Below, in pieces: positions 2,135 to 41,843 of a stretch of 44,592 nt of DNA. The notes beneath the pieces are model-generated. The model did no database searches, was not told where the DNA came from, and worked only from the letters and a program-made list of their open reading frames with translations. Where the stretch lies: the NCBI GenBank assembly GCA_012034765.1, contig JAAUOU010000025.1:1-44592 (forward strand), given 5' to 3'. A program made the position numbers and the translations under genes. Position 1 is the stretch's first letter, and each line of letters starts with the position of its first letter. The DNA is from Pleurocapsaceae cyanobacterium CSU_1_1. Its GTDB lineage: Bacteria; Cyanobacteriota; Cyanobacteriia; Cyanobacteriales; Xenococcaceae.

Positions 2135-2892
2135 ATGAACAACAATTTAATGCAAGAAATGTGGAACCAACGGGCAAAACAAGATGCCTTTTACTATGTA
2201 GAATCTGCATTTTGGAATGGCAATATTGATGCTTTTTTTGCCCTTGGAGAAGAAAGAGCTAAATTGATTATTGATCCACACATTACTCAATTCATACCTA
2301 ATACAAGTAACGCATCTGCATTAGAAATTGGATGTGGTGTTGGAAGATTTAGTCGTGCTTTAGCAAAAAGATTTTGTAAAGTAGTGGCAGTTGATGTATC
2401 TGAAGAAATGATAAAAAAAGCTAAAGAATTACATCCAGTTCAAAAGTATCCTAATCTAGAATTTCAGGCAACTGATGGCAAATCTATTTCTTTTTGCCTA
2501 CAGAAAGTACTGATTTTATTTTTTCTTATGAAGTTTTCCAACATATGCCTTCTTATGAAGTTATCTTGAATAACCTTCAGGATATTCACAAAGTTCTTAA
2601 ATCAAAAGGTGTAGCATTTATTCACCTCCGAACAGAATCGTTATTTTCACCAAATACTGTCAAAAAAACTCTTAAAAGAATTATTCCTAATTCGATATGG
2701 ACGACTTTAGGGTTTAAACCATTTACGTTTGATGATACTTGGACAGGGACATCTTTAACTCGCAAAAATATTCAACAACTATGCACTTCAGCAAACCTAA
2801 AAATTTTACAGTTTATTGATGACCCAACTCATTCTCCTGGAACACGAATATTTCTTGTGGCTACTCCGATGCCTCTTCCAATAACTTCATAG
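2135..2892 (+). CDS. Class I SAM-dependent methyltransferase (frameshifted)
   Basis: Reads as one protein of about 252 aa split by a one-base deletion. The first frame (2135 on) has the SAM-binding motif I LEIGCGVGRFSRALAKRF at about residues 64-81, followed by the acidic strand end VAVDVSEEM. The second frame picks up at the T run 2491-2495 (five T; six would restore SFLPTESTDFIFSYEVFQHMP) and continues to the stop at 2892. This is the Methyltransf_11/25 type, substrate unknown. It lies 27 nt upstream of a glycosyltransferase and is probably cotranscribed with it, so a sugar or glycan substrate is plausible. The break matches homopolymer breaks elsewhere in the window and is probably a sequencing error. 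Confidence 0.75.
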
Positions 2893-2919
2893 CATTATAG
2901 ACAAAGCCCTAGAGTTTTA

Positions 2920-4064
2920 ATGACTGAAATTAAAAGCTTTCAGATAGGAATGGGTTGGTTTTCCGAACAACCAGGAGGACTAAATCGCTACTATTATGAC
3001 TGTTGCCAATATCTACCCCAAGCAGATATCAAGATTACAGGCTTGTTAGCTGGCTCACATCAAGTTGCCCAAGACAGCAAAGGACAAGTTACAGCCTTCG
3101 CTTCTCCCAATGATTCTCTGTTGCAGCGTTGGCTAAAATGAGGGCAATCTTTGCTCAAACTGTAGTGGAAAATCAATATGACCTCATAGTATCCCATTTT
3201 GCTCTCTATACTTTCCCTATTCTGAATCAACTAAAAACCCTTCCTTTAGTTACCCATTTCCATGGTCCTTGGGCATTAGAAAGTGATGTGGAAGCCAAGA
3301 AAAATGTAGCGGTTAAAGTTAAAAAGCTCTTAGAAAAAACTGTATATAATCGTTCTTCTCAATTTATCGTTCTTTCTCAAACTTTTCGCAATATTTTACA
3401 TCAAGAATATCAAGTTCCTCTGGAAAAAATCCAGATTATCCCTGGTGGAGTAAATATAGGTCGCTTTAATATCAATTTATCTCCCACCGAAGCCCGCGAT
3501 CTCCTAAACTGGCATCAAGATCGACCAACTATTTTTTGTATCCGTCGTTTAGCCAAACGTATGGGACTAGAAAACCTAGTTAGCGCAATGGCACAAGTAC
3601 GCGATCGCCATCCCGATATTTTGCTTTATATTGCTGGTAAAGGTGCATTAGCTGCAACCCTCCAAACTCAAATTACCGAATTAGACTTAGCTAATCACGT
3701 CAAACTATTAGGATATGTACCAGATGAACAATTGCCTTTATGCTATCGTGCTGCAAATTTTTCAGTAGTGCCTACAATTGCTCTAGAAGGGTTTGGTTTG
3801 ATCGTCATCGAATCCTTGGCTGCTGGTACTCCTGTATTAGGAACTCCCATCGGGGGGATTCCTGAAATACTCAAACCTTTTTCCGAAGATTTAGTATTTG
3901 AAGGCTGCAATCGGGATCAATTAGCCACAGGAATTATCGAAGCCTTATCGGGCGATCGCTCTTTGCCTAGTAGTCAAGACTGTTTAGACTATGTGGAAGC
4001 CAATTATAATTGGAAGGAGATCGCACAACAAATTAAGCTTGTATATCAGCAAGCGATAGGATAA
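2920..4064 (+). CDS. Family 4 glycosyltransferase (frameshifted)
   Basis: A GT-B glycosyltransferase of about 381 aa. The N-terminal 73 aa (QIGMGWFSEQPGGLNRYYYD) are in one frame and the rest, from residue 74, in another. The break is at the A run 3136-3139: four A, whereas five would restore the reading RWLKMRAIFAQ. The C-terminal half carries the family signature, including IPGGVNIGRFN, then EGFGLIVIESLAAGTPVLG (the E-x7-E nucleotide-sugar site) and GGIPEIL. It probably transfers a sugar from a nucleotide donor onto a lipid- or polysaccharide-linked acceptor at the cytoplasmic face of the membrane. It follows the methyltransferase in the same direction and converges on recR. Confidence 0.85.
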
Positions 4065-4094
4065 GTTTTAGTTAAAACAAGGATCGGGAGAAAA

Positions 4095-4688
4095 TCAATC
4101 CAATTCTCGTCTGCCTTCTAAAGCCCTAGCGAGGGTAACTTCATCGGCATATTCCAAGTCTCCACCCATCGGCAAACCAAAAGCAATTCTAGTGACTTTA
4201 GTAAAAGGTCTAACTAGACCATTAATATACAGTGTCGTGGTTTCCCCTTCAACGCTGGGACTGATCGCTAAAATCACCTCTTCAATTTGCTCTTTAGTTA
4301 GGCGACGCACCAATGCCTCGATATTAAGCTGCTCAGGGCCAATACCGTCCATCGGTGAGATTACTCCCCCCAAGACATGATATAGACCACGATATTCTCT
4401 AGTTTTTTCTAGGGCAATGGTATCACGAGAGTCAGCGACTACACAAATAGTAGTGCGATCGCGATTTTGATTACTACAGATCGAACAGACAGGTTCGGCA
4501 GAAAGATGGAAACAAACCTTACATAAGCCCACCTGTTGTTTGGCAGCGACAAGTGCCTGAGCTAGTGCCTGGACTTCTTTTTCGGGGCGTTTGATGAGGT
4601 GTAGGGCTAATCTCTGGGCGGTTTTAGGTCCTACTCCAGGCAAAAGCTGTAACTGCTCAATTAAACGAGCTAAAGGAGGCGTATAAAT
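4095..4688 (-). CDS. recR: Recombination protein RecR, probable AUU start
   Basis: RecR works with RecF/RecO at single-strand gaps and loads RecA. The helix-hairpin-helix [17 protein letters not shown] is at residues 14-30, the four-Cys zinc finger [16 protein letters not shown] follows near residue 55, and then comes the Toprim domain ([24 protein letters not shown]). The only standard start codon in frame is a TTG at 4643, which would delete the beginning of the protein. Reading upstream gives [14 protein letters not shown], the normal RecR N-terminus, preceded by ATT at 4686-4688. A Shine-Dalgarno AGGAG lies six bases ahead of that ATT and an in-frame stop (TAG) is four codons upstream. 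With ATT as start the product is 197 aa, the usual RecR size. Confidence 0.9.
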
Positions 4689-4999
4689 GGCGAACTCCTA
4701 TAATTATTTAGATGTTTAAGAAAATGTATTATATCAAATCAGTACTTAAATACCGACAAGGGTTACCTAAATTCAGCAATTAATAGCTACTTCTTAATCA
4801 ATCCTTAGACAGCATTTATTACTATGGGCAGATAACGTTCTTTGATTGATTCGGGATAAGATTTGAACAGCCAGGTTTATTGCCTAAAATACTTTTAAGA
4901 TGAAATACAAAAATGACTCCCCCAGTCATGCCATTTGTAGTAAACATTTAAGTATTTCAAATAATCTCTCTACATATTCATTCGGTAAGCGCGCAAACA
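4689..4999. other. Divergent recR-ppk1 spacer with a small hairpin
   Basis: A 311-nt AT-rich spacer between divergently transcribed recR and ppk1, so it should hold both promoters. The only structure I see is a hairpin at 4913-4929 (ATGACT / AGTCAT around five C), 70 nt before ppk1. I found no convincing Pho box although ppk genes are often phosphate-regulated. Confidence 0.5.
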
Positions 5000-7156
5000 A
5001 TGACTAGCACCAAATCCACCAATAGTGCCATTAATCTCAGCGATCCTCAGTATTATTTCAATCGAGAATTAAGTTGGCTAGAATTTAATCGACGAGTTTT
5101 AGCTGAAGCACTAGATGAGAGAACGCTATTGCTAGAACGTCTTAAGTTTATGGCGATTTTTAGCTCGAACCTAGATGAATTTTTCATGGTCAGAATTGCT
5201 GCTTTAAAAAAACAGGTGGAAGCAGGAGTGAGTAAACTATCGGCAGATGGTCGTACAGCCCAACAACAGCTAGAGGCAATCACCAAGGTTTTGACACCGA
5301 TGTTTCAAGAGCAACATCGGCATTTTGAAAAAGTACTCAAAAAATCCTTGGTTAAATCAGGGATTCATTTGCTAAATTATGTCGATCTCAATCAAGAGCA
5401 ACGAGCCTATATCAATAGTTATTTTGAGGACTATATTTTTCCTGTTTTAACTCCGCTAGCTGTAGATCCCTCTCATCCTTTTCCCTACATTTCTAATCTC
5501 AGCTTGAATCTGGCAGTGGTTTTAAAAGATCCTCAAATCGATGAGGAATTGTTTGCCAGAGTAAAAGTCCCTAAAGTACTACCTCGCTTTGTCGCTTTAC
5601 CAGAAGAATTAAGACAAAAGTATCGAGGTAATCCTGGAGTTTGGACAGGAGTGCCGATGGAACAGATTGTGACTCATAATTTAGAGTATTTATTCCCTGG
5701 AATGAATATTTTAGAGTCTTACGCCTTTCGAGTAACTCGTAATGCCGATATTTCAGTAGAAGAAGACGAGGCAGATGATTTATTGCTAGCAATTGAAAAA
5801 GAGCTACAAAAAAGGCGTATTGGAGGGTCTGCGGTGCGCTTAGAAGTAGAAGCTTCGATTCCTGCCGAACTGCGCTCGATGATTATTCAAGAACTTAGTT
5901 TGGAAGAAAACGATGTTTATGATGTTGATGGCTTACTCAGCTTAGGGGATTTGATGTCTTTCTTATCCCTACCCCTAAGCGAGCTTAAAGATAAACCCTG
6001 GAACTCCGTACTGCCCCCTCGTTTGAGTTGGTTACAGGAAGAAAATGAATCCATGAGTGAAGGCAAAAACTTTTTCAACGTGATTCGCAATGGTGATTTG
6101 CTAGTACATCATCCCTATCATTCCTTTAGTAACACTGTTCTGCGCTTTGTCACCGAAGCTGCTCACGATCCCAATGTTCTGGCGATCAAAATGACTTTAT
6201 ATCGTACCTCTGGAGATTCACCAATCATCAAAGCTTTGATTGCCGCAGCACAGAATGAAAAGCAGGTAGTGGCATTAGTTGAGCTTAAGGCGCGCTTTGA
6301 TGAAGAGAATAATATCCTGTGGGCAAAAAAACTAGAGCAGTCAGGAGTTCATGTAGTTTATGGTGTCACTGGACTTAAAACCCACACCAAAATTACTTTA
6401 GTAGTGCGACAGGAAAAAGATAAAATTCGCCGTTATGTTCATATTGGGACAGGCAACTATAATCCTAAAACCGCCAAGCTTTATACAGATTTGAGTCTAT
6501 TAAGCTGTCGAGAAGACTTGGGGGCAGATTTAACGGATTTATTCAATTTCTTAACTGGTTATTCTCGGCAAAAATCCTATCGTAAGTTGCTGGTTGCTCC
6601 AGTTAATCTGCGAGAGCGCATGGTCGAGATGATCAATCGCGAGGCAGAAAATTGTCGTCAGGGCAAAACAGGACGGATTGTCGTCAAAATGAACTCACTA
6701 GTCGACCAGCCAGTAATTGAGGCGCTATATGAAGCTTCCCAGGCTGGAGTTGAAATTGATTTAATTATTAGAGGGATCTGCTGTCTGCGACCAGGATTGC
6801 CCAAGATCAGTGAGAAGATTCGCGTTATTAGTATTATTGGGCGCTTTTTAGAACATTCGCGTATTTTCTATTTCCATAATGACGGACAAGAAGAAATTTA
6901 TATCGGTAGTGCCGACTGGATGACCCGTAATTTGAGTCGTCGAGTCGAAGCGGTTACACCAATTGAAAGCCCTGAAATCTTTCGCGACCTTCAGGAAATT
7001 TTGGGAGTAATGCTGGCGGATAATCGTAAGGCTTGGGAGTTGCAGTCAGACGGAAGTTTTATCCAAAGAAAACCGCAAAAAGGAGAAGAGGTTCATAGTA
7101 CCCACGATATCTTTATGGAAATGGCGCAACAATCGGCTGGAATGGCTTCTAATTGA
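5000..7156 (+). CDS. ppk1: Polyphosphate kinase 1
   Basis: Transfers the gamma-phosphate of ATP reversibly onto polyphosphate. At 718 aa it is full length. The N-terminal domain (YFNRELSWLEFNRRVL, residues 18-33, and FSSNLDEFFMVR) and the two phospholipase-D-like catalytic domains are present. The autophosphorylated histidine is H462 (TGLKTHTKI) and the second active-site histidine is H619 (LEHSRIFYFHND). Their spacing of 157 residues equals that of E. coli H435 and H592. HIGTGNYNPKTAKLYTDL is the family signature. The start at 5000 has no clear Shine-Dalgarno, which is common in cyanobacteria. It is monocistronic, with no exopolyphosphatase gene beside it. Confidence 0.97.
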   Translation: MTSTKSTNSAINLSDPQYYFNRELSWLEFNRRVLAEALDERTLLLERLKFMAIFSSNLDEFFMVRIAALKKQVEAGVSKLSADGRTAQQQLEAITKVLTPMFQEQHRHFEKVLKKSLVKSGIHLLNYVDLNQEQRAYINSYFEDYIFPVLTPLAVDPSHPFPYISNLSLNLAVVLKDPQIDEELFARVKVPKVLPRFVALPEELRQKYRGNPGVWTGVPMEQIVTHNLEYLFPGMNILESYAFRVTRNADISVEEDEADDLLLAIEKELQKRRIGGSAVRLEVEASIPAELRSMIIQELSLEENDVYDVDGLLSLGDLMSFLSLPLSELKDKPWNSVLPPRLSWLQEENESMSEGKNFFNVIRNGDLLVHHPYHSFSNTVLRFVTEAAHDPNVLAIKMTLYRTSGDSPIIKALIAAAQNEKQVVALVELKARFDEENNILWAKKLEQSGVHVVYGVTGLKTHTKITLVVRQEKDKIRRYVHIGTGNYNPKTAKLYTDLSLLSCREDLGADLTDLFNFLTGYSRQKSYRKLLVAPVNLRERMVEMINREAENCRQGKTGRIVVKMNSLVDQPVIEALYEASQAGVEIDLIIRGICCLRPGLPKISEKIRVISIIGRFLEHSRIFYFHNDGQEEIYIGSADWMTRNLSRRVEAVTPIESPEIFRDLQEILGVMLADNRKAWELQSDGSFIQRKPQKGEEVHSTHDIFMEMAQQSAGMASN

Positions 7157-7244
7157 TGACAACCTTATGATCCGCCGTTATTCTGGGTTTAATTATCATT
7201 TCTGGGCATCACAGTTAATCACCTACGCCACATTTTTTGATACA

Positions 7245-7400
7245 CCACTAGTACCGCTATGCGGAAGTCAAAAGTCCTAAAGGACGACGCGGAGCTAGTG
7301 TGATGCGAAGCGAATCCTTTAGGGCTTTAGCATAAGCTTCGCGACGCGATATGCGGAGCGGTATCCTTTAGGACGTAAGGAGCTAGTCCTTTAGGGCAAA
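7245..7400. repeat. Cluster of palindromic repeats (TCCTTTAGGR family)
   Basis: This intergenic stretch is built of short repeated words. TCCTTTAGG occurs at 7315, 7363 and 7387, and its reverse complement sits inside 7274-7285. GCGGAGC or CGGAGC, GCTTCGCG and GCTAGT recur between them, many in inverted orientation. The 14-mer GAATCCTTTAGGGC at 7312-7325 is identical to 39865-39878 in the left flank of the TnpB element. This looks like an expanded small mobile palindrome family. It is non-coding in all frames. Confidence 0.75.
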
Positions 7401-7447
7401 TCAAAAGTCTTTTATTTCAAAGGTTTCAAACTTTTTGAATAGGTGCT

Positions 7448-8195: not shown

Positions 8196-10603
8196 ATGGT
8201 CACAACACCAATTAACAGAAATATTGCATCAGAATCAGTTTTAACTCCCGAACAACTTCGTAAAATTCATGCTTACTGGCGCGCCTGTAACTATCTTGCC
8301 ATTGGCATGATTTACCTTAGAGATAATCCTCTGTTAAAAGAATCCCTAAAACCGGAACATATCAAACAACGATTACTAGGACATTGGGGATCATCTCCCG
8401 CCCTTAGTTTTATCTACATTCATCTCAATCGACTGATTAAAAAATACGACCTTAACGCCATCTATATCGCTGGTCCAGGGCATGGTGCGCCAGGGGTATT
8501 AGGCCCTGTTTATCTAGAAGGTACTTATTCGGAAATTTATCCCGATAAAAGCGAAGATACAGAAGGAATGCAGAAATTTTTCAAGCAATTCTCGTTCCCA
8601 GGTCATATTGGTAGCCATTGTACTCCCGAAACTCCAGGTTCAATTCATGAAGGAGGCGAACTCGGTTACAGTCTTTCCCATGCCTTCGGCGCAGTTTATG
8701 ACAACCCCGATTTAATTGCAGCTTGTGTTGTGGGAGATGGAGAAGCAGAAACAGGAGCTTTAGCAACTGCTTGGCATTCCAATAAGTTCCTTAATCCCGT
8801 CCGTGATGGGGCAGTATTACCCATACTCAACCTCAACGGCTATAAAATAGCTAACCCAACCATTCTCGCTCGTATTAGCCCAGAAGAACTCGATAGCTTA
8901 TTCCGAGGCTATGGCTATACACCCTATGTAGTCGAAGGTTCTGACCCAGAACTGATGCACCAACAAATGGCAGCCACAATGGAGGAATGCATTGTCAAAA
9001 TTCGGGAGATTCAGCAAGAAGCCCGCAGTCAAAATAAAGCTTTCCGTCCTCGTTGGCCGATGATTATCCTGCGTAGTCCTAAAGGTTGGACAGGCCCCAA
9101 AGATGTAGACGGTCATAAAGTTGAAGGATTCTGGCGATCGCACCAAGTGCCGATGGGAGAAATGCACTCTAATCCCGAACACGTCAAACTTCTAGAAGAG
9201 TGGATGAAGAGTTATCGACCAGAAGAACTATTTGATGAGAATGGTACTTTGCTCCCCGAATTAAAAGAACTTGCACCTGTGGGGATACGTCGTATGAGTG
9301 CTAATCCAGTAACGAACGCTGGTTTGGTGCGTAAAGACCTTAAGCTTCCCGATTTCCGTAACTATGCAGTGGCAATGGACAAGCCTGGCACGGTGGAAGT
9401 AGAAAATACGGCGGTATTAGGGAAATTTTTACGGGATGTAATGCGCAACAACCTGAATAACTTTCGCGTTTTTGGCCCCGACGAAACCGCTTCTAATCGT
9501 CTCTCTGCGATCTATGAAGTCACTAAAAAAACTTGGTTGGCAGATTATTTACCTGAAGATGAAGACGGCAGTCAATTATCTCCTGACGGTAGAGTTATGG
9601 AAATGTTGAGTGAGCATACCCTGGAAGGATGGCTAGAAGGATATTTATTGACAGGGAAACACGGCTTTTTCCACACTTACGAAGCTTTTGTTCACGTCAT
9701 TGACTCGATGTTTAATCAACACGCTAAATGGTTAGATATCTGCAAAATTATGTACCTTGGCGAACTTCGGTTTCTTCTCTCAATATCATGTTATCTTCTT
9801 TGGTTTGGCGACAAGACCATAATGGCTTTTCTCACCAAGATCCAGGTTTTGTCGATCTGGTAACTAATAAAAGTGCTGATGTTACCCGTGTTTATTTTCC
9901 TCCTGATGCTAATTGTTTGCTTTCGGTTGCCGATCATTGTTTACGGAGTAAGGACTATGTAAATGTCATCGTCTCTGACAAACAAAAGCACCTGCAATAC
10001 CTCACGATGGAAGAAGCAATCAAGCACTGTACGAAAGGGATTGGTATTTGGGAGTGGGCGAGTAATGACGACTGTGGTCAAGAACCAGATGAGCCTGATG
10101 TAATTATGGCTTGTTGTGGTGACATTCCCACTAAGGAATCTTTGGCAGCCACGGCAATTCTAAGGGAAGAGTTTCCCGACTTAAAAGTCCGCTTTATTAA
10201 TGTGGTAGATTTATATCGTCTACAAACCGAAACTGAACATCCTCACGGTTTATCTAACAAGGAATTTGACATTCTCTTTACTGCCGATAAACCTGTAATT
10301 TTTAACTTCCACGGTTATCCCTGGCTGATTCATAAACTTGCTTATCGCCGTACGAATCAAGAACGAATTCACGTTCGTGGTTACAAAGAACAGGGTAATA
10401 TCAATACGCCTTTGGAACTAGCAATTCTCAATCAGATCGATCGCTTTAATTTAGTGATTGATGTAATCGATCGCGTTCCTCACTTGGGTTCTCGTGCTGC
10501 TTATGTCAGAGAACGAATGAGAGATGAGATTATTGATAATTTGGCTTATGCTCATTCTGAGGGTATGGATCAACCTGAAGTGGTTAATTGGCAGTGGAGT
10601 TAA
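8196..10603 (+). CDS. xfp: Xylulose-5-phosphate/fructose-6-phosphate phosphoketolase (frameshifted)
   Basis: A thiamine-diphosphate enzyme that cleaves xylulose-5-P or fructose-6-P with phosphate to acetyl-phosphate plus a C3 or C4 sugar phosphate. It reads as about 802 aa, the usual length. The first frame carries GPGHGAPG, the motif [18 protein letters not shown] and the TPP/Mg motif GDGEAETG (about residue 183). The frame breaks near 9734, where restoring one A gives [13 protein letters not shown]. The second frame continues with [26 protein letters not shown] and the C-terminal domain. No acetate kinase gene is adjacent. The nearby acs could link acetyl-phosphate-derived acetate to acetyl-CoA, but it is 22 kb away. 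The break is probably a sequencing error. Confidence 0.93.
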
Positions 10604-10604
10604 T

Positions 10605-11495: not shown

Positions 11496-11884
11496 TTATA
11501 CAGATCTGCCCTCGGTTGGGCCTTGAATTGCCTTCCAACCAGCTATACCGCCCTGAAGTTGCGACACACTCTCAAAACCTTCCTTACGTATCTGATTAGC
11601 TACTGTTTCAGCTTCTTGATCATTGCTGCTGTAGACATAGATCTCGCGGTTTTTGGTAAATTTACCACGGTTTCCATCAACATTGCGCCTGTAATTCTTT
11701 CTTCTAAATAAGATTCGCGCTCGCGGGCATCGATAATGGTTAAACTAGGTTCGCCCCACTGTAAGCGTTCTTTTAAAGCCTGAGCGCTCGATTTAGGCGT
11801 AGCTGGCGGGGGAGTGGGAATACCTTTGGTGATTTTTTCTTTAGCTTTGGAGATGGCTTGAGCTTCTGCTTTTTGTTCAGACAT
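11496..11884 (-). CDS. Rhodanese-like domain protein (frameshifted)
   Basis: A small cytoplasmic protein of about 129 aa with a Pro-rich N-terminus (TPPPATPKSS) and a single rhodanese domain. The first frame gives LTIIDARERESYLEERITGA. The second frame gives EIYVYSSNDQEAETVANQIR and then LQGGIAGWKAIQGPTEGRSV to a TAA at 11496-11498. The break is at the T run 11650-11654 (minus-strand A run): five bases, whereas six would join NLPKNREIYVYS. The active-site loop reads YSSND, so the usual catalytic Cys of sulfurtransferases is Ser. It may be a non-catalytic rhodanese, as many cyanobacterial ones are. The ATG at 11884 is preferred over the TTG at 11899. Confidence 0.8.
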
Positions 11885-12081
11885 AAAATTTTTATCCAAT
11901 AAATTCTTATTATTACTAATTTATGCAGGTTTCTGCTGCTAATGAATCCCTCTAAAGGAATAAATATTGATGATGATCTGAGCTATAAATATTTCTTTTG
12001 ATTTATGGCGATCGCTAATGGATGAGAAGACGCTTTGTTATAATAGTTGCTCTATTAAACTCAACAAGCGCTCTATTTTTA

Positions 12082-12471
12082 ATGCAGACTACTGTTAATT
12101 TTGAACTTCAAGCTATAGATGATGAGCTATCTAAACGCCCTATAGCTCTCGATCCTGGGGGCTACTATATTATCTACCTAGATCGAGAGGCGGGGCTAAT
12201 TTGCGCCAAACACTATACTAATATTATTAACGAGCAGGGATTAGCAGCAGATCCAGAAACAGGAGAAGTGATTGCCTGTGGTGGGAAGAAAGTTGAGCGC
12301 AGCGTGGAAAAGCTCTATACCGCCAGAACTGCTAAAGAATTGTGTGTCGAGGTAATTGAAAAGCCTCAACCCTGTCCTCTGACTATGTTAGACCATGCTG
12401 CCTACTTAGGGAGAGAGTTTACCAGGGCTGAGTATGCTTTAGTTAATGGTACTGAATATACTCAGGATTAA
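12082..12471 (+). CDS. DUF4346 protein
   Basis: A 129-aa protein matching the conserved cyanobacterial DUF4346 pattern: LDPGGYYIIYLDREAGLICAKHY at about residues 23-45, then INEQGLAADPETGEVIACGG and the C-terminal YLGREFTRAEYAL. In other organisms this domain can be attached to dihydropteroate-synthase-like proteins. Its biochemical role is not established. The frame is open upstream to an ATG at 12022, but those 20 residues look unlike the family, so I place the start at 12082. Its stop overlaps the stop of the convergent psb32 by three bases. Confidence 0.75.
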   Translation: MQTTVNFELQAIDDELSKRPIALDPGGYYIIYLDREAGLICAKHYTNIINEQGLAADPETGEVIACGGKKVERSVEKLYTARTAKELCVEVIEKPQPCPLTMLDHAAYLGREFTRAEYALVNGTEYTQD

Positions 12472-21539: not shown

Positions 21540-23164
21540 TTAATAATCAAAATCACCAGCACCGCCACCAGCAGCACCTTGACTTTTTTCTGGCTTATCA
21601 ACGACGATACATTCGGTAGTCAAAACCATTCCCGCGATCGAAGCAGCATTTTGTAATGCGGAGCGAGTTACCTTAGCAGGGTCAATAATACCAGCTTCAA
21701 ACATGTTGACAAATTCATTAGTAGCAGCATTAAAACCAATGCTCAGGTCTTTTTCTTTGACTCTTTCGGCAACTACCGCGCCGTTTTGACCAGCGTTTTC
21801 GGCAATTCTTTTTAAAGGTGCAGTTAAGGCACGGGCAACTATTGTTGCGCCAGTCAAAGCTTCATCTTTAAGGTTAGCCTTTGCCCACTCTTCTAAGCCA
21901 GGAACTAAGTGAGCGAGGGTAGCACCACCACCAGGAACAATCCCCTCTTCTACCGCAGCTTTAGTTGCGTTGATCGCATCTTCTAAACGCAATTTACGGT
22001 CTTTCATTTCGGTTTCCGTCGCAGCACCAACTTTGATGACAGCAACACCACCAGAAAGTTTAGCCAAACGTTCCTGTAGTTTTTCTTGGTCATAAGAAGA
22101 CTCAGTGGCTTCTATTTGACGACGAATTTGCTCACAACGGCTTTTAACTGCCGCTTCATTACCTTCGGCAACAATAGTAGTGCTGTCTTTAGTAATATTG
22201 ATCCGACGAGCAGTACCAAGCATGTCTACATTAGCACTCTCTAGTTTCAAACCAGCATCTTCGGAGATAACCTGACCACCAGTTAGAACGGCAATATCTT
22301 CTAACATTTGCTTACGGCGATCGCCAAAACCAGGAGCTTTAATTGCAGCTACATTAAGTACCCCACGTAAACGGTTCACTACCAAAGTAGCCAAGGCTTC
22401 TTTTTCAATATCTTCAGCAATAATTACCAAAGGCTTGCCCTGACGTGCTACCTGTTCTAATACAGGTACAAGATCCTGTACAAGATTGATTTTCTTGTCG
22501 GTAATCAAGATTAGAGGTTCTTCTAAGGCTGCCTCCATTCTTTCAGTGTCAGTGACAAAATAAGGAGAGATATAGCCTTTATCAAAGCGCATCCCTTCAG
22601 TAATTTCTAGTTCGGTAGTCATAGACTTACCTTCTTCTAGGGAGATAACTCCTTCTTTACCGACTTTATCCATTGCCTGAGCAATCATATCGCCCACTTC
22701 TTGGTCGTTACCAGCAGAAATAGTTCCTACTTGAGCGATCGCTTTAGAATCACCTACCGGCCGTGCCTGTTCTTTAATCTTGCCCACTAAATGCTCGATC
22801 GCCTTGTCAATTCCCCGTTTGATGGCAATAGGATTTGCCCCTGCGGCGACGTTGCGTAGACCTTCTTTAACGATGGCATGAGCCAAAACTGTAGCAGTAG
22901 TAGTTCCATCTCCCGCTACATCATTGGTTTTGGAGGCGGCTTGACGAATCAAAGATACGCCAGTATTCTCAATGTGATCTTCTAATTCAATTTCTTTGGC
23001 GATCGTTATCCCATCATTAACAATTTGGGGCGCGCCAAATTTTTTTCAAGGACAACATTACGTCCTTTAGGCCCAAGGGTAACGGCTACCGCTTCAGCCA
23101 ATAGATCGATTCCTTTTTCTAACGCACGACGGGCTTCGTCGTTATAAATAATAGATTTAGCCAT
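21540..23164 (-). CDS. groEL: Chaperonin GroEL (frameshifted)
   Basis: The 60-kDa chaperonin, about 541 aa when the frame is repaired. The first 40 residues ([34 protein letters not shown]) run from the ATG at 23164. The frame breaks at the T run 23040-23046, the minus-strand A run: seven bases, whereas eight restores [20 protein letters not shown]. The rest is intact, with [11 protein letters not shown] for ATP binding and the ending GGGAGDFDY. That tail, without the Gly-Met repeats of the enterobacterial protein, and the position after groES mark it as cyanobacterial GroEL1. Since a groEL in a groESL operon is essential or nearly so, the break is most likely a sequencing error. Confidence 0.95.
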
Positions 23165-27728: not shown

Positions 27729-29167
27729 ATGAATAATGGAACACAAGTTGGAAACTTGCTTCCAAGACCTTTAAGAACAGTCTTTAAATCGTTCTCCTCT
27801 GCATGGTTTCTGTGTATTCCTTTGGCAGCAGTAATTGTCGTAGTTTGGAATACAGCAGCTACAGCTCAAGGATTAGAAGCGCCTAAAAGTTTAGAAGAAT
27901 TAACAGTTGTTGTAAATACAATATTTATCTTAACTAGCGCGATTCTAGTAATCTTTATGAATGCTGGATTTGCGATGGTAGAAGCAGGATTTTGTCGCCA
28001 AAAAAATGCGGTAAATATTCTTGCTAAAAATTTAATTGTTTTTGCTGTGGCAACTTTAGCTTATTGGGCGATTGGTTATGCTCTGATGTATGGTGAGGGG
28101 AATCCTTTTATTGGCTTACAAGGTTTCTTTTTAATGGCAATCCTGCCCCCTATGGAAATGACGCTTATCCCGCAGCAGTACCTGAATCGGTTTCCTTTTT
28201 ATTCCAAGTTGCTTTTGCGGCAACCGCAGCAACAATTGTCTCTGGGGCAGTAGCAGAAAGAATCCATTTTGGTGCTTTCCTAATTTTCAGCACCTTACTA
28301 GTAGCTGTTTCCTACGCTGTTACTGGACACTGGGTTTGGGATGGCGGCTGGTTAGCTGAAATGGGCTTTAGAGACTTTGCTGGTTCGTCAGTAGTCCACT
28401 CCGTTGGCGGGTGGGCAGCTTTGGTTGGTGCAGCTATGCTAGGTCCTAGGCTGGGTAAATACCAAAATGGTAGAATTAATGCTATTCCTGGTCATAACAT
28501 GGGTTTTGCCACTTTAGGATGTTTGATTTTGTGGATTGGCTGGTTTGGTTTCAACCCTGGTTCAGAGCTGGCAGCGACAGCTAACGTTCCCTATATTGCG
28601 CTGACGACTAATTTAGCAGGAGCAGCAGGTGGAGCGGCATCTACTGTAACATCCTGGCTTAAAGATGGTAAGCCTGACTTATCCATGATCATCAACGGTA
28701 TTCTAGCTGGTTTAGTTGGTATTACTGCTGGTTGTGCAGATGTTAGCTATTTGTCCGCCATAATTATCGGCTTAATTGCTGGTGTGATTGTAGTTTTTTC
28801 TGTTGGTTTCTTTGACAGTATTAAAATTGATGATCCTGTCGGTGCAACTTCTGTCCACTTGGTATGTGGTATTTGGGGAACTTTAGCAGTAGGTATCTTT
28901 AGTACTAATCCAGAACATAATATAGTTACTCAGCTAATTGGTGTTCTTGCTATTGCTGCATTTACTATAACTTTTAGTGCAATTGTCTGGGGTATTCTCA
29001 AATTTACTATTGGGATCAGAGTAGACGAAGACGATGAAAGAAAGGGTTTAGATATCAGCGAACACGGTATGGAAGCATACAGTGGCTTTGTTAAGGAGGC
29101 TGATGTATTGTCTGGTGGTGCAGGCGTTCATACTAGAATGGGTTCAGTTGAAACTTCTGAATTCTAA
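27729..29167 (+). CDS. amt: Ammonium transporter (frameshifted)
   Basis: An Amt/Rh family trimeric ammonium channel of about 479 aa. It has an N-terminal signal-like helix ending near TAATAQG and then the helices [22 protein letters not shown] (residues 77-98). After the break come [20 protein letters not shown], with the first pore His, [10 protein letters not shown], and [21 protein letters not shown], with the second pore His. The frame is lost near 28133: one more A would give [22 protein letters not shown]. The region between the two frames is open in the second frame throughout. The break is most likely a sequencing error. Confidence 0.93.
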
Positions 29168-29278: not shown

Positions 29279-30479
29279 TTAATAATCAGGTACGGCAAAA
29301 CCTTTAAGAGAATCTGATTGGGTTAAATTTTTGACTTGGATTAGCACCCCATATCCCCCTAAGCCAGTCGGCTCGATTAACTGATGCAAAGCATCGCGAC
29401 GTTTGAATATTTCAGGAAGGCTAAATTTACCACTGGATAATTCGTTAAGGCGATCGCCCAAACCTAAAGCCATTAAAAACAGTCCCTGTTGGGTAAAGCC
29501 GATCTGATGGAGATTATAAAGCTCACCATAAAGCTCTAGGGCAGTAAAGTTAACGTGAGCCGTAATATCCTGATACCCCAAATTGGCATAAGGATTGTTA
29601 TGACGACGGTGTTGATAGTAGCATTGTAGAGTACCCTGATGGCGCGAGGGACGGTAATATTTCTCGGCGCTATAGCCATAGTCGATAGTTAATATATATC
29701 CCCGCTTTAGCTTGCTGGCAACGGTTTCCAGCCAATCCAACGCTTGCAGATTAACTTCCGTGCGATAGCCTTGGGGATATTGCTGCTGCGATAAGTCTAC
29801 ACCTATGCGTTCAAAGTACTGGGTTAGGTTTTCGCTGGAAATATCATCGATAATTTCGGTTAATTTATGATCTCGAATACTCAGATATACTTCTTTTAGC
29901 TGCTGCCCTTCTTTTTGCACCAAATGCACGGGAAAGGCATCAACTAGCTCATTCGAAAAAAAACAGCCTTCAATACTTTCAGGATTAATGTCAGACCAAC
30001 TCTGCCATTTTAGGTCAACCGTTCCCTGCCTTCCGCGGTCAAAATTAAGCCAAGATTTAAGTCGTTCTTGCTGCTGTTTAACTAAGTTTGGCGATCGCTC
30101 AATAATAATATATTGCAAAGCCTCTAAAAAAGACTGGTGAGCGTTACTTTGAAAGTAATTTAAAAGATCTTGTGCTAGTTCGCCATTTCCTGCCCCCATT
30201 TCCACTAAATAAAAAGGATTTGGACAGCCTAGAATATGCCACATTTGTTGAAGCTGCACTCCTAACAATTGACCAAAATCTTGACCCAGAGAAGAAGCAG
30301 TAAAAAAAATCTCCCTGAGAACCAATACTTACTTTCGTCGTATAGTAGCCATACTGCTGATGATATAAAGCTAAAGCCATATACTGAGCAAAAGTAATTT
30401 GCTGGGACGGGGCGCTGTGAATTTGGGCTAGCAGAATCTCCTGTAACCTTTGAGAATTAGAAAATTCTGACAAACTCAT
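29279..30479 (-). CDS. MidA-family SAM methyltransferase (COG1565/DUF185, frameshifted)
   Basis: A class I methyltransferase of the MidA/NDUFAF7 family, about 399 aa after repair. The first frame (from 30479) gives ITFAQYMALALYHQQYGYYT and IGSQGDFF. The second gives FFTASSLGQDFGQLLGVQLQ, the SAM motif LVEMGAGNGELAQDLL, SNELVDAFPVHLVQ and the GYILTIDYGYSAEKYYRPSR motif. The break is at the A run 30302-30309 (minus-strand T run): eight bases where seven would be in frame. This is an insertion, unlike most other breaks in the window. The mitochondrial homologue methylates an Arg of a complex I subunit. The cyanobacterial target, possibly an NDH-1 subunit, is inference. Confidence 0.88.
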
Positions 30480-30691
30480 AATTAAATCTGCGCCGACTTG
30501 AGACTATCTATTTATATTATCCGTCTAAGAGGACTATTCTCAAGGTGTCACATTAATACTCGGATATAACCTTAGTTATTGTAAGCTGTGGGGGAATTTA
30601 ATTACTCCAGACCAAGATTATGCCCTAGTTTCTACTGAGATTCTCAATTATAAGATATGGTGTAAATCGATTTTAATAATCCGTAATGTGA

Positions 30692-34939: not shown

Positions 34940-35907
34940 TTACAGCTTAATATTATCGAGCTTTTGTCGTGGATTAAAGTTACTAGCCTGTCGCAGTTTT
35001 TGATAATATTCTTGTTCAACTTCGTTAATATCTTTAGGAGTCACTATCTTTAAGGTCAGCATTAAATCGGTACGCTGCATACTTGGTTTCCACCAGCCTT
35101 TACCTTTGAGCCTTAAAGATTGTCCTGAGTCTACACCTGGCGGAATTTTCATCGCTACCTTGCCGTCGGGAGTTGGCACCTGAATTTCTGCACCTAACAC
35201 TGCTTCTTCGGGAGTTATCGGTATTTCAGCAACTAGATTATCCCCTTGAAATTTAAAAAAAGGATGAGGCTGTAGTTCAATATTGAGATATAAATCTCCC
35301 CTTTGTCCAGAAAGAGAACTAGATGGACCTTTACCTTTAATTTTTAAACGGCTTCCTGATTTAGCACCAGAGGGAATCCGCACCTTCACTGTCTCATTAC
35401 CCAAGACAAACTGTTTCTCTGTACCGTTAAAAGCTTCCGAGAAAGAGAGTGCAATTGACCCCTCACTATCTGGAGGAGGCATATTGTTACCATAGCTAGT
35501 GCTAGCGCTGTTAGCAGAAGATCGATAGCTTCGCGTGCACGTGCTACACCACGACCTAACATTTCGTTGATAAAATCTTCAAAATTGCCATATTGACCAA
35601 AATCAAAATCGCCAAAATCTACACTGACTCCAGGATTGGTTGACGACCTTGAGGACGTACCTGATTGTCCCATTTGTGACCAATATTGACCGTATTGATC
35701 GTATTTGCGACGTTTGTCGGGGTCTGATAATACTTCTTGTGCCTCGTTAACTTCCTTAAAACGAGCTTCCGCATTCTTGTCTCCCGAATTGAGGTCAGGA
35801 TGATATTTGCGGGCTAATTTGCGATAAGCTTGCTTAATTTCGTCAGAACTGGCATTTTTGTTAATACCTAGTACCTGGTAGTAATCTTTAAAGTCGTTAA
35901 CAGCCAT
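34940..35907 (-). CDS. DnaJ/CbpA-type Hsp40 co-chaperone (frameshifted)
   Basis: A type II J-domain protein of about 322 aa. The J domain is at residues 8-70 ([20 protein letters not shown], then RKYHPDLN with the HPD motif). A Gly/Ser/Phe-rich linker follows ([20 protein letters not shown]). The C-terminal substrate-binding domains are in another frame: ISLTFSEAF-like [54 protein letters not shown] and [17 protein letters not shown]. The frame break lies between about 35500 and 35560. Adding one base near 35540 joins the linker to [15 protein letters not shown]. There is no zinc-finger domain. It stimulates DnaK. Probably a sequencing error rather than a real break. Confidence 0.88.
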
Positions 35908-37005: not shown

Positions 37006-37192
37006 ATTACTAAAAATTTTATGTGACTATTTTTATGGTGGAAATCAAAAAAATGGAGTAAAAATAAGCTTAATTTACCAAGTTTAAGTCTTATTTCCAC
37101 TCACAAGCCGACTGCAAGAATACTTTTACTCTGCATTGGGCGAGAAACTTCTTACTAAAATGCACCTTATAAATCGTGCAAGAAATTTATTC

Positions 37193-37732
37193 TTATGCAT
37201 TGACTGCTGGTTTAGTTTCTGTACCAGTGCGCTCGCCATCGCCTTTTAAATTTTCTCCTTCAATAAAGGAACGTAGCATCCAAGCCATTTCTTCATGCTG
37301 TTCCATCAAGCCCGTTAGAAAGTCCGCAGTACCTTCATCATGGTAATTTTCACCGCACTTATCAATGTCTTCTCTAAAGTTACGGATAATTTGTTCGTGA
37401 TCCTGTACCAGACGACTAACCATTTCATTAGCAGGTGGCAAATCGTTGGCATGTTCTTTAATCGAACTATACTGAATAAATCCTGCTGCTGTACCCAGAG
37501 GATAACCACCCAAAGCGCGCACTCTCTCTGCTGTCGCGTCTATATTGATGGTTAAAGTATTATAATGTTCTTCCCAAAGGGTATGTAGAGTACGGAATTG
37601 AGGCCCAACTACATCCCAATGATACTTTTTGGTTTTGATGAGCAATAGGTATTGATCTGCTAGATCTTTATTTAACAACTCAATAACGCCATGACGTTGT
37701 TCTTCGGTTAGTCCAATATTTGGCTGTGGCAT
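37193..37732 (-). CDS. dps: Dps family ferritin-like DNA-protection protein
   Basis: A 179-aa Dps-type miniferritin that oxidises and stores iron and protects DNA. Helix A begins GVIELLNKDLADQYLLLIKTKKYHWDVVGP, with the inter-subunit ferroxidase His (H42). HTLWEEHYNTLTINIDATAERVRALGG supplies the second His and the Asp/Glu ligands (residues 49-75). The C-terminal helix GLMEQHEEMAWMLRSFIE is followed by a hydrophilic tail of about 20 residues. It is monocistronic and divergent from the HxlR regulator. Confidence 0.93.
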   Translation of the reverse strand: MPQPNIGLTEEQRHGVIELLNKDLADQYLLLIKTKKYHWDVVGPQFRTLHTLWEEHYNTLTINIDATAERVRALGGYPLGTAAGFIQYSSIKEHANDLPPANEMVSRLVQDHEQIIRNFREDIDKCGENYHDEGTADFLTGLMEQHEEMAWMLRSFIEGENLKGDGERTGTETKPAVNA

Positions 37733-38088
37733 AAAACTTTTGGTTGTGTAGTTACATCTTTATTAAACCAACCAGCCAAGCGATCGCACATCTATTGTAG
37801 GAAAGAAACTTATAATTAAAAGTCTGACTAAAGATGTATATATATCTAAAGACAAAAAATTAATACTAAGTACTACATACTATATTTTTTGCAACAGGGC
37901 TTGACTCAAATATATCTAGTTTCTGATTTTTGATTACTTGAGTTTATAAACTTAATTACTGGAAAATCAATCCTCAAATCTCAGTATTCTGGGAAAAAGT
38001 GTGTATCTAAGTAATAAAGGCACTGGATTTGTGGTAATGATGCTTCAAAGAAACGATCAGAACTGATTTGTGGTGTCCTGAAGTTGTT
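37733..38088. other. Divergent dps-hxlR spacer
   Basis: 356 nt with promoters for both genes expected. It contains one HIP1 site near 37778 and strongly AT-rich DNA, including alternating TA around 37835-37850. A TTGACT at about 37911 could be a -35 element, but I see no matching -10. No obvious HxlR operator palindrome was found. Confidence 0.4.
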
Positions 38089-38457
38089 ATGACAAAGCAT
38101 AATTTTATGAAAAAATCGCCGTCGTGTCAGGAATCAACCGATCTGCAAAAAAATGTAAACGTGGCTGCTGTAGTAGAAGCAGTTTTTGGCTGTAAATGGT
38201 CATTGAGTATACTAGGTTTAATTCGTCGTGGTGTATGTCGTCCTAGTGCGATTGAGCGAGAAATAGAAGGCTTAACTCCCCGCGTCAAAAACTATTATTT
38301 TCGTCGCATGATGAATTTAGGTATTTTAGAAAAGATTGTTTATCCTGAAGTTCCGCCCCATGTAGAATATCGACTGACAGACTTTGGCAAGCGTTTTCTG
38401 CCAATTATTGATGCAATTGAAAAGCTACAAGAAGATCTAAAGCAAGAAAATCAATAA
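38089..38457 (+). CDS. HxlR-type winged-helix transcriptional regulator
   Basis: A 122-aa regulator. The HxlR winged helix covers residues 20-105: VVEAVFGCKWSLSILGLIRRG, then IEREIEGLTPRVKNYYFRRMMNLGIL (recognition helix) and the wing EYRLTDFGKRFLPII. A Cys at residue 35 next to KW is the position used for redox or electrophile sensing in some HxlR proteins. It is divergent from dps, which makes dps a candidate target, by inference only. ATG starts exist at 38089 and 38107. The open frame also extends upstream to a TTG. Confidence 0.88.
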   Translation: MTKHNFMKKSPSCQESTDLQKNVNVAAVVEAVFGCKWSLSILGLIRRGVCRPSAIEREIEGLTPRVKNYYFRRMMNLGILEKIVYPEVPPHVEYRLTDFGKRFLPIIDAIEKLQEDLKQENQ

Positions 38458-38556
38458 TTTGAAGTAACAATATTTTTGCTCAAATAAGCGATCGCCCTAA
38501 AAAAATCTCTCATACCATTTGTCGAAAATAAGAGGAGACTTGCTAAAAATACTTGA

Positions 38557-39714
38557 TTACACCTTTAGCACTACCAATTTTTGTTTGGTTTCATCCCAAT
38601 TCCAGCGCAATAGATTAGCCTGTTGCCCTACAGCAATATCTGGTAGGGCGATCGCTTGGCGGGGAGATTTTGTTGCCATGGCGATCGCTTTTTCAAGATC
38701 GCAACCCCACTTCACTAAATTCTCTACACCGACTAATAGCGGTAAGGTAGTACCCGATAACGTCCCATCCTCTAATCTGGCTGTGCCTTTGGTGACGGTA
38801 ATTTGTCGTTGATCCCAAGGATAAACCCCGTCGGCTAAACCCATCGGAGAGAGGGCATCACTTACAAGAAAGATACCCTGTTCGTAGTTACTAGCCTTGA
38901 GGAGAATTTCGATCATGGTGGGACAGACGTGATTGCCATCGGCGATTAAACCACAGTAGACATTAGGGTTGACGATCGCTGCTCCTAATAATCCTGGTTG
39001 GCGATGATGCAAACTAGGCATGGCATTAAAAGCATGAGTAACCATTGATGCACCCTGCTTAAATGCCTCTTGTGCTTCAGTGACTGTCGCCTGAGAATGT
39101 CCTAAACTAACGATGATATTTTTCTTCCTTAAATAGGGAATTGTTGTCTTGCTACTGTCTAACTCTGGTGCAAGGGTAATTAGCTTGACAATCTGGCTAT
39201 AGTTGCCCAAAATTCGTTTAATATTTTCAATGGTTAAGGGTAATAAATATTGTTCTGGATGAGCGCCTCGCTTCTGGTAGTTTAAAAAAGGGCCTTCTAG
39301 ATGAACTCCTAAAATCTGTGCTGTATTGACTGGATCTTGAATTGTCATAAATTGAGCGATGGTGGCAAGCGATCGCTGGATTTTATCTACGGAAGTAGTT
39401 ACAATTGTTGGTAAAAAGCCATCTACTCCCTGTTGCCATAGAAAATCGCAGATCTGCTTAAGCCGAGGTAAGTCTGTTGCTGCTAAATCAGGAAAAGCCA
39501 AACCCAAACCACCATTGATCTGAAGATCGATTCCCCCCAAAGATAGCCAATCTTTTTGTAAGTCTAGTATGGGAATATCTGTTGCTCTTAGCTGGGTTGC
39601 ATCACCGCTATTAGTCGCAGACATCTGGTTAATTTTGCCAGCAGCGATCGCCACCTGGTACAGCCCTTCATGTCCTACAATCTGAGCATTTTGAATTAAT
39701 AAATCTGCTTTCAT
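38557..39714 (-). CDS. nagA: N-acetylglucosamine-6-phosphate deacetylase
   Basis: A 385-aa amidohydrolase that deacetylates GlcNAc-6-P in amino-sugar or peptidoglycan recycling. MKADLLIQNAQIVG starts the protein at the ATG 39714, with GAGGGAA-like purine-rich sequence just upstream. The longer open frame upstream is rejected because the sequence before this Met is unlike the family. HLEGPFLN (metal Glu), SLGHSQATVTEA and VTHAFNAMPSLHHRQPG (metal His residues), LIADGNHV and FLVSDAL with the catalytic Asp are all present. No nagB or transporter is adjacent. Confidence 0.93.
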   Translation of the reverse strand: MKADLLIQNAQIVGHEGLYQVAIAAGKINQMSATNSGDATQLRATDIPILDLQKDWLSLGGIDLQINGGLGLAFPDLAATDLPRLKQICDFLWQQGVDGFLPTIVTTSVDKIQRSLATIAQFMTIQDPVNTAQILGVHLEGPFLNYQKRGAHPEQYLLPLTIENIKRILGNYSQIVKLITLAPELDSSKTTIPYLRKKNIIVSLGHSQATVTEAQEAFKQGASMVTHAFNAMPSLHHRQPGLLGAAIVNPNVYCGLIADGNHVCPTMIEILLKASNYEQGIFLVSDALSPMGLADGVYPWDQRQITVTKGTARLEDGTLSGTTLPLLVGVENLVKWGCDLEKAIAMATKSPRQAIALPDIAVGQQANLLRWNWDETKQKLVVLKV

Positions 39715-39952
39715 CTTAATCTTCCCTCTTGATTTCCTTCGTTTAAAGATAAAGCTAAATTTTGTCGGATTACCGATAATTTTGAGTTTAAAGCCCCGTA
39801 CTTGACCGAAGGGAATGCTAAAGCACATTGTACCCCTGTGGTATACCGCTTCGTGACCGATAGGGAATCCTTTAGGGCAGGACGGCTTCTTGATGCACTT
39901 CTTCCTCGACGGAAACCGCCAAGACCAGAGTGCGTCGCTTTATATGATATTT

Positions 39953-39976
39953 CTTATGCTGATATGTTAGCATAAG
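39953..39976 (+). promoter_or_regulatory. Hairpin abutting the tnpB start codon
   Basis: A perfect 8-bp stem, CTTATGCT / AGCATAAG, with an 8-nt loop ends three bases before the tnpB ATG. It would occupy the ribosome-binding region, so it could limit TnpB translation. It may also be a left-end subterminal hairpin recognised by TnpA. Confidence 0.65.
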
Positions 39977-39979
39977 ATT

Positions 39980-41116
39980 ATGTTAGTTTTAGAAGCCAAG
40001 ATATACGGAAAACCAGCTCAATATCAAGCGGTGGATGAAGCCATAAGAACGGCTCAATTCATACGCAACAAAGCACTGCGTTATTGGATGGACAATAAAG
40101 GAGTAGGAAAATACGACTTAAGTGCGTACTGCAAAGTATTAGCTCAAAAGTTTCCTTTTGCTCAAAAGTTAAATTCCATGGCAAGGCAATCTAGTGCTGA
40201 TAGAGCTTGGGCTGCGATATCTCGTTTTTATGATAACTGTAAGAAAAAAGTAGCTGAAAAAAAAGGATATCCTAAATTTAAAAAGCATTCTCGCTCAGTT
40301 GAATATAAAACAAGTGGTTGGAAACTTTCTGAAAATAGAAAACAAATAACTTTTACTGACGGTAATAATATTGGCACTGTTAAGCTCAAAGGTACTCGGG
40401 ATTTGAATTGGTATGACCTTAAACAAATCAAGCGAGTAAGAATAGTTAAACGTGCTGATGGCTATTATTGTCAGTTCTTAGTTGATGCAGACAATCGAGA
40501 AAAAGTAGAGCCGTCTTATTCGGAGATTGGTCTTGATGTTGGTTTAAACCATTTTTATACAGATGACAAGGGAAATCAAATTGATAATCCGCGTTTTTAT
40601 CGAAAGGTCGAAAAATCTCTTAATCGATTAAACAGAAGTAAATCTAGGAAGTATAAAAAAGGAGCAAAACCCCAGTCTAAAAATTATCACAAAGCCAGAA
40701 AAAGATACGCCTTAAAGCACCTCAAAATAAGTAGGCAGCGTAAAGATCATGCTGTGAAGTTGGCACGATGCGTAGTCACATCTAACGATGTAGTCGCCTA
40801 TGAAGATTTGAGAATTAGCAATATGGTGAAGAATCATAATTTAGCTAAGTCGATAACTGATGCTGGCTGGTATCAATTCAGAGTTTGGTTAGAGTATTTT
40901 GGGTATAAATTTGGCAAGATAACTATTGCCGTTCCGCCCCAATATACTTCTATCAATTGCTCTAGTTGTGGAGCGAAGGTGAAGAAAGCTCTAAGCACCA
41001 GAACACACAAATGTAAGTGTGGCTGCATTTTAGATCGTGATGAGAATGCCGCCAAAAATATTCTCTCATTAGGATTAAACACCGCAGGGCGTGCGGTGCG
41101 GTCACGTTTTGAGTAA
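39980..41116 (+). CDS. tnpB: RNA-guided nuclease TnpB (OrfB)
   Basis: A 378-aa, apparently intact TnpB. The RuvC-like triad is D186 (GLDVGL), E275 (AYEDLRISN) and the Asp pair D352/D354 (LDRDENAAKN). The zinc-finger cysteines are C327, C330, C345 and C347-349. The N-terminal REC-like region (VDEAIRTAQFIRNKALRYW, SSADRAWAAISRFYDN) is complete. TnpB proteins of this family are omega-RNA-guided DNA endonucleases that help element retention. The catalytic residues are all present, so the protein could be active. The reading frame is free of the indels that affect so many neighbours. Confidence 0.95.
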   Translation: MLVLEAKIYGKPAQYQAVDEAIRTAQFIRNKALRYWMDNKGVGKYDLSAYCKVLAQKFPFAQKLNSMARQSSADRAWAAISRFYDNCKKKVAEKKGYPKFKKHSRSVEYKTSGWKLSENRKQITFTDGNNIGTVKLKGTRDLNWYDLKQIKRVRIVKRADGYYCQFLVDADNREKVEPSYSEIGLDVGLNHFYTDDKGNQIDNPRFYRKVEKSLNRLNRSKSRKYKKGAKPQSKNYHKARKRYALKHLKISRQRKDHAVKLARCVVTSNDVVAYEDLRISNMVKNHNLAKSITDAGWYQFRVWLEYFGYKFGKITIAVPPQYTSINCSSCGAKVKKALSTRTHKCKCGCILDRDENAAKNILSLGLNTAGRAVRSRFE

Positions 41117-41271
41117 GAGTATTCTTACTCAAAAGCTGACCTGGTCAGCCTGGGGAGACACAACCTCTATTTAAGTTGGTGCAAACCTGCTTGAGTAAGT
41201 TTTGTCTGTGAACTAGGAATCCCTGCTCGTTTACACCCCAATGGGATGGGTGCAAGCGACGGGGAGCGTCA
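41050..41271 (+). ncRNA. Candidate omega-RNA / right end of the TnpB element
   Basis: By analogy with characterised TnpB elements, the guide RNA overlaps the tnpB 3' end and runs to the element's right end. Three hairpins support this. The first spans the stop codon with a perfect 12-bp stem (TTTTGAGTAAGA, 41107-41118, loop GTAT). The second is at 41135-41149 (GCTGACC / GGTCAGC). The third is a long imperfect stem at 41220-41265 (CGTTTACACCC against GGGTGCAAGCG). The guide would then be the chromosomal sequence just after about 41271. The 5' boundary is a guess. Confidence 0.55.
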
Positions 41272-41319
41272 AGTCAATAAAAAAGATAAAATACAAAACT
41301 AAGAATTTTAACAACAACT

Positions 41320-41843
41320 TTGAGTGAAACTACACCATTAATTGGCATTATTATGGGCAGCGATTCCGATCTGCCCACGATGGAAAAAGCGATCGCTGTT
41401 TGCGAAGATTTTGCTATATCTTATGAGGTAGCAATTATTTCTGCCCATCGTACTCCAGACAGAATGGTTGAGTATGCCCGCAATGCTCACCAAAAGGTAT
41501 TAAAATAATCATTGCTGGGGCGGGAGGCGCTGCCCATTTGCCAGGAATGGTAGCTGCTTTGACTCCTCTACCTGTAATCGGTGTCCCTGTGACAACTCGT
41601 CAGCTACAGGGGGTTGATTCTCTCTATTCTATTGTCCAGATGCCTAGAGGTATTCCCGTTGCGACAGTGGCGATCGGCAATGCTCAAAATGCAGGGTTGT
41701 TAGCCGTGCAAATATTGGCGACAAGTGAGCCACAACTACAAAATAAGATTCAACAATATCGCCAAAATCTAGCTCAAACTGTTCTTGACAAACAAGAGCG
41801 CCTTGATAAATTAGGTTATCAAACTTACTTAACTCAGATGTAA
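41320..41843 (+). CDS. purE: N5-carboxyaminoimidazole ribonucleotide mutase (frameshifted)
   Basis: The PurE step of purine synthesis, about 174 aa. [16 protein letters not shown] is at residues 9-24, SAHRTPDRM follows near residue 42, and [11 protein letters not shown] and [28 protein letters not shown] come after the break. The frame is lost at the A run 41492-41495: four bases, whereas five restores [14 protein letters not shown]. The start codon appears to be TTG at 41320, with no clear Shine-Dalgarno. As a single-copy purine gene it should be intact, so a sequencing error is likely. Confidence 0.92.

What the first reader, a model, noticed from the sequence alone, without database searches (positions are those of the whole stretch)
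2135..41843. Nine conserved genes broken by single-base indels, mostly in homopolymers
The breaks are at 2491-2495 (T5, needs 6), 3136-3139 (A4, needs 5), near 9734 (one A), 11650-11654 (T5, needs 6), near 28133 (one A), 23040-23046 (T7, needs 8), 30302-30309 (A8, needs 7), near 35540 and 41492-41495 (A4, needs 5). The genes include groEL, purE, amt and xfp. In each case both frames give conserved family sequence that joins after a one-base change. This argues for systematic read error, so gene breaks here should not be read as biology.
Basis: partly seen in the sequence, partly recalled or inferred. Interest (0 to 1): 0.75.

Follow-up and report, generated by a model that had tools for sequence, protein, structure and literature searches.

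The report
Gene breaks from sequencing errors
Nine ordinary cyanobacterial genes look broken here most likely because the assembly has single-base length errors, which also occur elsewhere in this genome but not in the close relatives checked, so the breaks should not be read as biology.

Summary
The window is from a cyanobacterium close to Pleurocapsa sp. CCALA 161. Eight of nine breaks are single-base length differences where congeners keep one open frame; the ninth (near 2491) has no close relative in hand and rests on complementary domain halves. Congener G002 gave 3 calls in 233 kb, each made only by this genome's own frames; 80 other loci gave 8 in 515 kb. At DNA level 19 of 21 changes are losses and 10 of 21 lie in runs of four or more; in-frame stops are not in excess and broken genes are as constrained as unbroken ones. 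Both psbB-like copies change frame at the same 13-mer, hard to square with a living oxygenic phototroph. New detail: four or five of 21 breaks sit at the edge of GCGATCGC (HIP1), a motif linked to DNA methylation, which hints at unpolished native long reads, perhaps nanopore. An artefact of low interest, useful as a data-quality warning.

The parts
2135..2892 (+). SAM-dependent methyltransferase in two frames, break near 2491-2495
   Evidence: Complementary Pfam pieces; no close relative found: probable only
2920..4064 (+). group 1 glycosyltransferase in two frames, break near 3135-3138
   Evidence: tblastn by 5 references; DNA alignment to L169 and L165; Pfam of second piece only
8196..10603 (+). 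phosphoketolase (xfp) in two frames, break at 9743-9747
   Evidence: G005 and G002 DNA, G002 DNA, tblastn
11499..11899 (-). rhodanese-domain protein, break at 11649-11654
   Evidence: G005 and G002 DNA, G005 DNA; the G005 copy matches Rhodanese 1-101 of 102, the window piece only 1-37
21540..23164 (-). groEL beside groES, break at 23039-23046
   Evidence: a second groEL on contig C168 is one open frame
27729..29167 (+). ammonium transporter (amt), break at 28127-28134
   Evidence: Pfam Ammonium_transp in both pieces
29279..30482 (-). Methyltransf_28 family protein, break at 30302-30309 (window one base longer than G002)
   Evidence: G002 DNA and tblastn; Pfam of the long piece, none for the short piece
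34940..35907 (-). DnaJ-type chaperone in two frames, break at 35536-35537
   Evidence: G005 and G002 DNA, G005 DNA; DnaJ and DnaJ_C in separate pieces; not called by the tblastn runs
41273..41843 (+). purE in two frames, break at 41491-41495
   Evidence: AIRC parts 2-54 and 68-147 in separate pieces

Best explanation
The breaks are assembly errors. Shown: length differences of one base in coding sequence occur in many of this genome's sampled contigs, 19 of 21 resolved at DNA level are losses, they favour runs of one base and the edges of the GCGATCGC motif, and a close relative lacks them. Inferred: the assembly was made mostly from native long reads (perhaps nanopore) without accurate polishing; the basecaller miscounts short runs and stumbles next to methylated HIP1 sites, and the consensus keeps the miscall because many reads make the same one. 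The real genes are then intact.
For: Beyond the window: 17 frame changes in 149,350 aligned bp outside and 7 in 29,488 bp inside. G002 had 3 calls in 232,979 bp, each made only by this genome's own frames, two at sites where it is itself broken and one unresolved (L215/L304). 80 named loci had 8 in 515,016 bp (earlier run 22 in 135,870 vs 0 in 122,800). G005 probed with G002 genes gave one multi-gap call in 42,886 bp. At DNA level one search found 24 frame changes in 144 gene segments (143,149 bp); after dropping two with four gaps and one of four bases at a start codon, 21 remain: 18 lose one base, 1 loses two, 2 gain one (sign test P 1e-4). 10 of 21 fall in runs of four or more against 8% of bases (P 2e-6). 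In-frame stop differences: 4 in 128 kb here vs 8 in 119 kb in G002. Pooled dN/dS is 0.099 in 22 broken and 0.093 in 121 unbroken segments. Both psbB-like copies change frame at the shared 13-mer GTCAAAAATATGC. HIP1: 5 of 21 breaks lie within 2 bases of GCGATCGC against 1.6% of positions (P 1.6e-5); 4 of 20 without one doubtful case (P 2.5e-4). One published long-read assembly showed mostly false deletions, in runs of two to eight (passages of PMC12007338), and base modifications cause systematic nanopore errors (passages of PMC10687267; abstract of PMC12506013).
Against: No reads or assembly metadata were available, so platform and coverage are unknown. Not every sampled stretch is affected: 12 of 23 loci with aligned genes had a single-gap change, and L101 had none in 14 kb. 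Several calls outside the window are weak (see Tried and rejected). The window's rate is about twice that outside (P 0.055), perhaps because the window's breaks were the reason for the finding. The HIP1 link was noticed after the fact, is seen only outside the window (0 of 7 inside), and rests on four or five events. In PMC10687267 the modification-linked errors were mostly mismatches, not indels. A recent wave of true frameshifts would also leave dN/dS unchanged.
Confidence: 0.95

Rival explanations
1. Real frameshifts: the genome is decaying (for example a symbiont or dependent strain) and these are young pseudogenes.
For: The assembly (4.6 Mb) is smaller than 11 of 12 congeners; the length differences are present in the deposited sequence.
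Against: Nonsense changes are not in excess; losses of one base dominate; both psbB-like copies and the groES-linked groEL are hit; constraint is unchanged, though that does not exclude very recent loss.
Confidence: 0.03
2. A mismatch-repair-deficient (mutator) culture that accumulates slippage mutations in runs.
For: Enrichment in runs of four or more.
Against: As aligned, 10 of 21 breaks have a run of only one or two bases (two of these, 9746 and 28134, may belong to A or T runs of five or six in G005), whereas slippage mutation favours long runs (established knowledge). A shared frame change of both psbB-like copies at one 13-mer fits a sequence-dependent miscall better.
Confidence: 0.015
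3. Programmed ribosomal frameshifting or transcriptional slippage restores the products.
For: Two window sites are runs of seven and eight bases (23040, 30302).
Against: Congeners encode the same genes in one frame at the same sites; unrelated genes and many short runs are involved.
Confidence: 0.005
4. Same verdict (error), different machine: 454, Ion Torrent or low-coverage PacBio reads rather than nanopore.
For: All these platforms miscount runs (established knowledge). Among the 80 named loci, the one with most calls (L019, 3 in 7.3 kb) has a contig named unitig_34, a naming style I recall from PacBio-era assemblers.
Against: Of five losses in runs of two, four touch HIP1 by my reading of the alignments, against 171 of 21,929 such runs in the reference genes; this suggests a base-modification effect, which native nanopore reads show.
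Confidence: 0.35

Closest known systems
Gene-fragmenting indel errors of long-read assemblies (Kastor, PMC12007338; passages seen)
   Same: Mostly false deletions, associated with runs of two to eight, A/T most often; genes are fragmented
   Different: Platform not known here; that paper's test assembly Pss508 had 2900 errors of all kinds, while here only about one frame change per 9 kb of aligned coding sequence was seen outside the window
Methylation-linked nanopore errors (PMC10687267 passages; PMC12506013 abstract)
   Same: Errors concentrate at a modified motif and survive consensus
   Different: In PMC10687267 mostly mismatches, in Listeria; here length errors at the edge of HIP1, and methylation itself was not measured

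Membership tests
Sequencing or assembly indel error | Close relatives have one open frame through the site | tested here: met
   8 of 9 window sites; the site near 2491 had no relative to test
Sequencing or assembly indel error | Occurs across the assembly irrespective of gene function | tested here: met
   17 calls in 149 kb outside the window, some weak; includes metH, a sigma factor and psbB (gene names by recall)
Sequencing or assembly indel error | Raw reads disagree with the consensus | not testable with these tools
   No reads available
Nanopore-type error | Deletion-biased, in short runs, plus methylated motifs | tested here: inconclusive
   19 losses of 21 and HIP1 association; methylation not measured; two full-length MethyltransfD12 matches and several C5 methylase matches are in the genome but their target sites were not assigned
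Pseudogene | Relaxed selection and excess nonsense changes | tested here: not met
   dN/dS 0.099 vs 0.093 (insensitive to very recent loss); 4 in-frame stop differences against 25 frame-change clusters
Programmed frameshift | Frame change conserved in relatives | tested here: not met
   Relatives are in one frame at 8 of 9 window sites

The most novel reading that the evidence does not exclude
The base losses next to GCGATCGC are real: HIP1 edges are hotspots of single-base loss in this lineage, and the cell tolerates or compensates for them.
Probability: 0.02. Interest if true: 0.7.

Novelty: not a real feature. Interest (0 to 1): 0.12.

Why it matters
Gene absences, pseudogene counts and split proteins from this genome should be distrusted. 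Scaling the rate outside the window to 4.6 Mb gives about 500 frame changes (17 in 149 kb, 95% range 0.7-1.8 per 10 kb); this is rough, because it treats the whole genome as coding and includes weak calls. If the HIP1 link holds, unpolished long-read cyanobacterial assemblies may share a predictable error motif, because HIP1 is frequent in many cyanobacteria (start of the abstract of PMC4390886, seen).

Tried and rejected
Synteny around ppk: stretches of G005 and G002 around their ppk matched the window only at ppk (with recR in G005), so genes were located by DNA searches of three window segments. Using this genome's own frames as references gave 8 clusters in G002 and 5 in G005. Most of these mirror this genome's own breaks. 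Not mirrors: L301 16521 in G002 (near an alignment end), and L157 1546 in G005, where the window carries one base more than G005 near 12076, at the start of ORF 12022-12471; I left that one unresolved. L215/L304 is called from both sides and which side is broken is not settled. Weak calls kept in the counts: L109 18401, L208 2879, L209 18467, L215 2840, L222 5101 (low identity or several gaps) and the two in L212 (the psaB reference may be a paralogue). Dropping L208, L209 and L215 from the DNA set leaves 17 losses and 1 gain of 18. The four-base gap at 37732 lies at the start of ORF 37193-37732 and is not a gene break, though it counts among the 22 broken segments; one of the 144 segments, with a multi-gap change only, is in neither group. 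For the two gains, the run length is this genome's, not the reference's. A suspected recR break (its frame seems to start late) was rejected: relatives are the same. Early calls in L106 and L206 disappeared at the stricter threshold. Homopolymer-length counts over whole alignments lean the same way (in runs of two or more, G005 as reference: 16 runs one base shorter here, 3 longer), but numbers are small and include intergenic sequence. Plasmid searches for the methyltransferase near 2491 gave two distant hits to the first piece and none to the second; among the loci held, four weak hits to the first piece and none to the second.

Full report
What the window is. It is contig C39 of a 4.61 Mb, 196-contig assembly. 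The genus has twelve other genomes among the 30 drawn. Relative G005 carries DNA identical over 8,725 bases to Pleurocapsa sp. CCALA 161 and is about 93% identical to this genome over 55 kb aligned, so this is a Pleurocapsa-like cyanobacterium.

The nine breaks. Alignments to G005 and G002 show a single-base gap at seven of the nine places. The glycosyltransferase break near 3136 is confirmed by more distant copies. The methyltransferase break near 2491 has no close relative and is only probable, from complementary Pfam pieces. In eight the window is, or for 2491 appears to be, one base short; in one (30302) it is one base long.

Not confined to the window. I took 34 stretches (529,027 bases) from other contigs of the same genome plus one short one, and used proteins from G002, other congeners and 80 named cyanobacterial loci as probes. 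This genome gave 24 frame changes in 178,838 aligned coding bases, 17 of them outside the window, some of these weak. G002 gave 3 in 232,979, each called only by this genome's own frames (two at sites where it is itself broken, one unresolved). The 80 named loci, 66 of them with 3 kb or more aligned, gave 8 in 515,016, in six loci, three of them in one contig (L019). Genes broken elsewhere include metH, a sigma factor, a phosphohexomutase-type enzyme, an ABC-transporter permease and a radical-SAM protein (named from the sequences by recall), and a MraW-family methylase.

Why error and not biology. At DNA level 21 single-gap changes of one or two bases were kept from 24 frame changes in 144 gene segments (143,149 bases): 19 losses and 2 gains. 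Ten are in runs of four or more, against 8% of bases. In-frame stop differences are not in excess (4 here in 128 kb, 8 in G002 in 119 kb; the G002 figure uses this genome's own frames as references, broken ones included). Broken and unbroken segments have nearly the same pooled dN/dS (0.099 and 0.093); this speaks against old decay but not very recent loss. Both psbB-like copies, 92% and 71% identical to the G002 probe, change frame at the same 13-mer. Two paralogues failing at one shared word, in a subunit that photosystem II needs (established knowledge), is what a sequence-dependent miscall would do.

A second error context. Five of the 21 lie within two bases of GCGATCGC, a zone that covers 1.6% of positions (P 1.6e-5); without the doubtful L209 site, four of 20 (P 2.5e-4). 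Of five losses in runs of two, four touch the octamer by my reading of the alignments, against 171 of 21,929 such runs. HIP1 contains the targets GATC and CGATCG of cyanobacterial methyltransferases (PMC4390886, start of abstract and passages), and the genome holds matches to a D12-type and to C5-type methylase families, specificity untested. The association was noticed after the fact and is absent from the window's own seven DNA-aligned breaks. It fits native nanopore reads, but the platform is inference. A search of the held library for HIP1 with nanopore and cyanobacteri gave three papers, none on this by title.

Verdict. The feature is ordinary. What is added is the measurement beyond the window, the control genomes and the HIP1 context.

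Noticed in passing
window 4095-4688 (-), recR: The recR frame has no ATG, GTG or TTG between an upstream stop and its conserved N-terminus; the likely start is ATT, 6 bases after GGAG. The same ATT codon is present in the copies of 7 of 7 genomes of the genus in hand, this one included; one of them (G006, L162) also has an upstream in-frame GTG. Across the order, 124 of 195 genomes match a RecR motif pattern, and by my reading nearly all listed rows have ATT or GTT there, with about ten ATG, GTG or TTG; GTT rows may start further upstream.
   Followed up: partly
L113 and L208 (contig C100 of the same genome): Looks like a far-red photoacclimation cluster: a second psbB, a short ApcE-like linker and a response-regulator protein with Hpt domain on one contig (the cluster name and ApcE are recalled).
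   Followed up: no
L019 (Cyanothece sp. BG0011, unitig_34): Three frame changes in 7.3 kb of aligned coding sequence; perhaps another assembly with the same problem.
   Followed up: no
Possibly acquired horizontally.
   Followed up: no
window 39980-41116 (+): IS200/IS605-type TnpB-like protein between two housekeeping genes (named by recall from its sequence).
   Followed up: no
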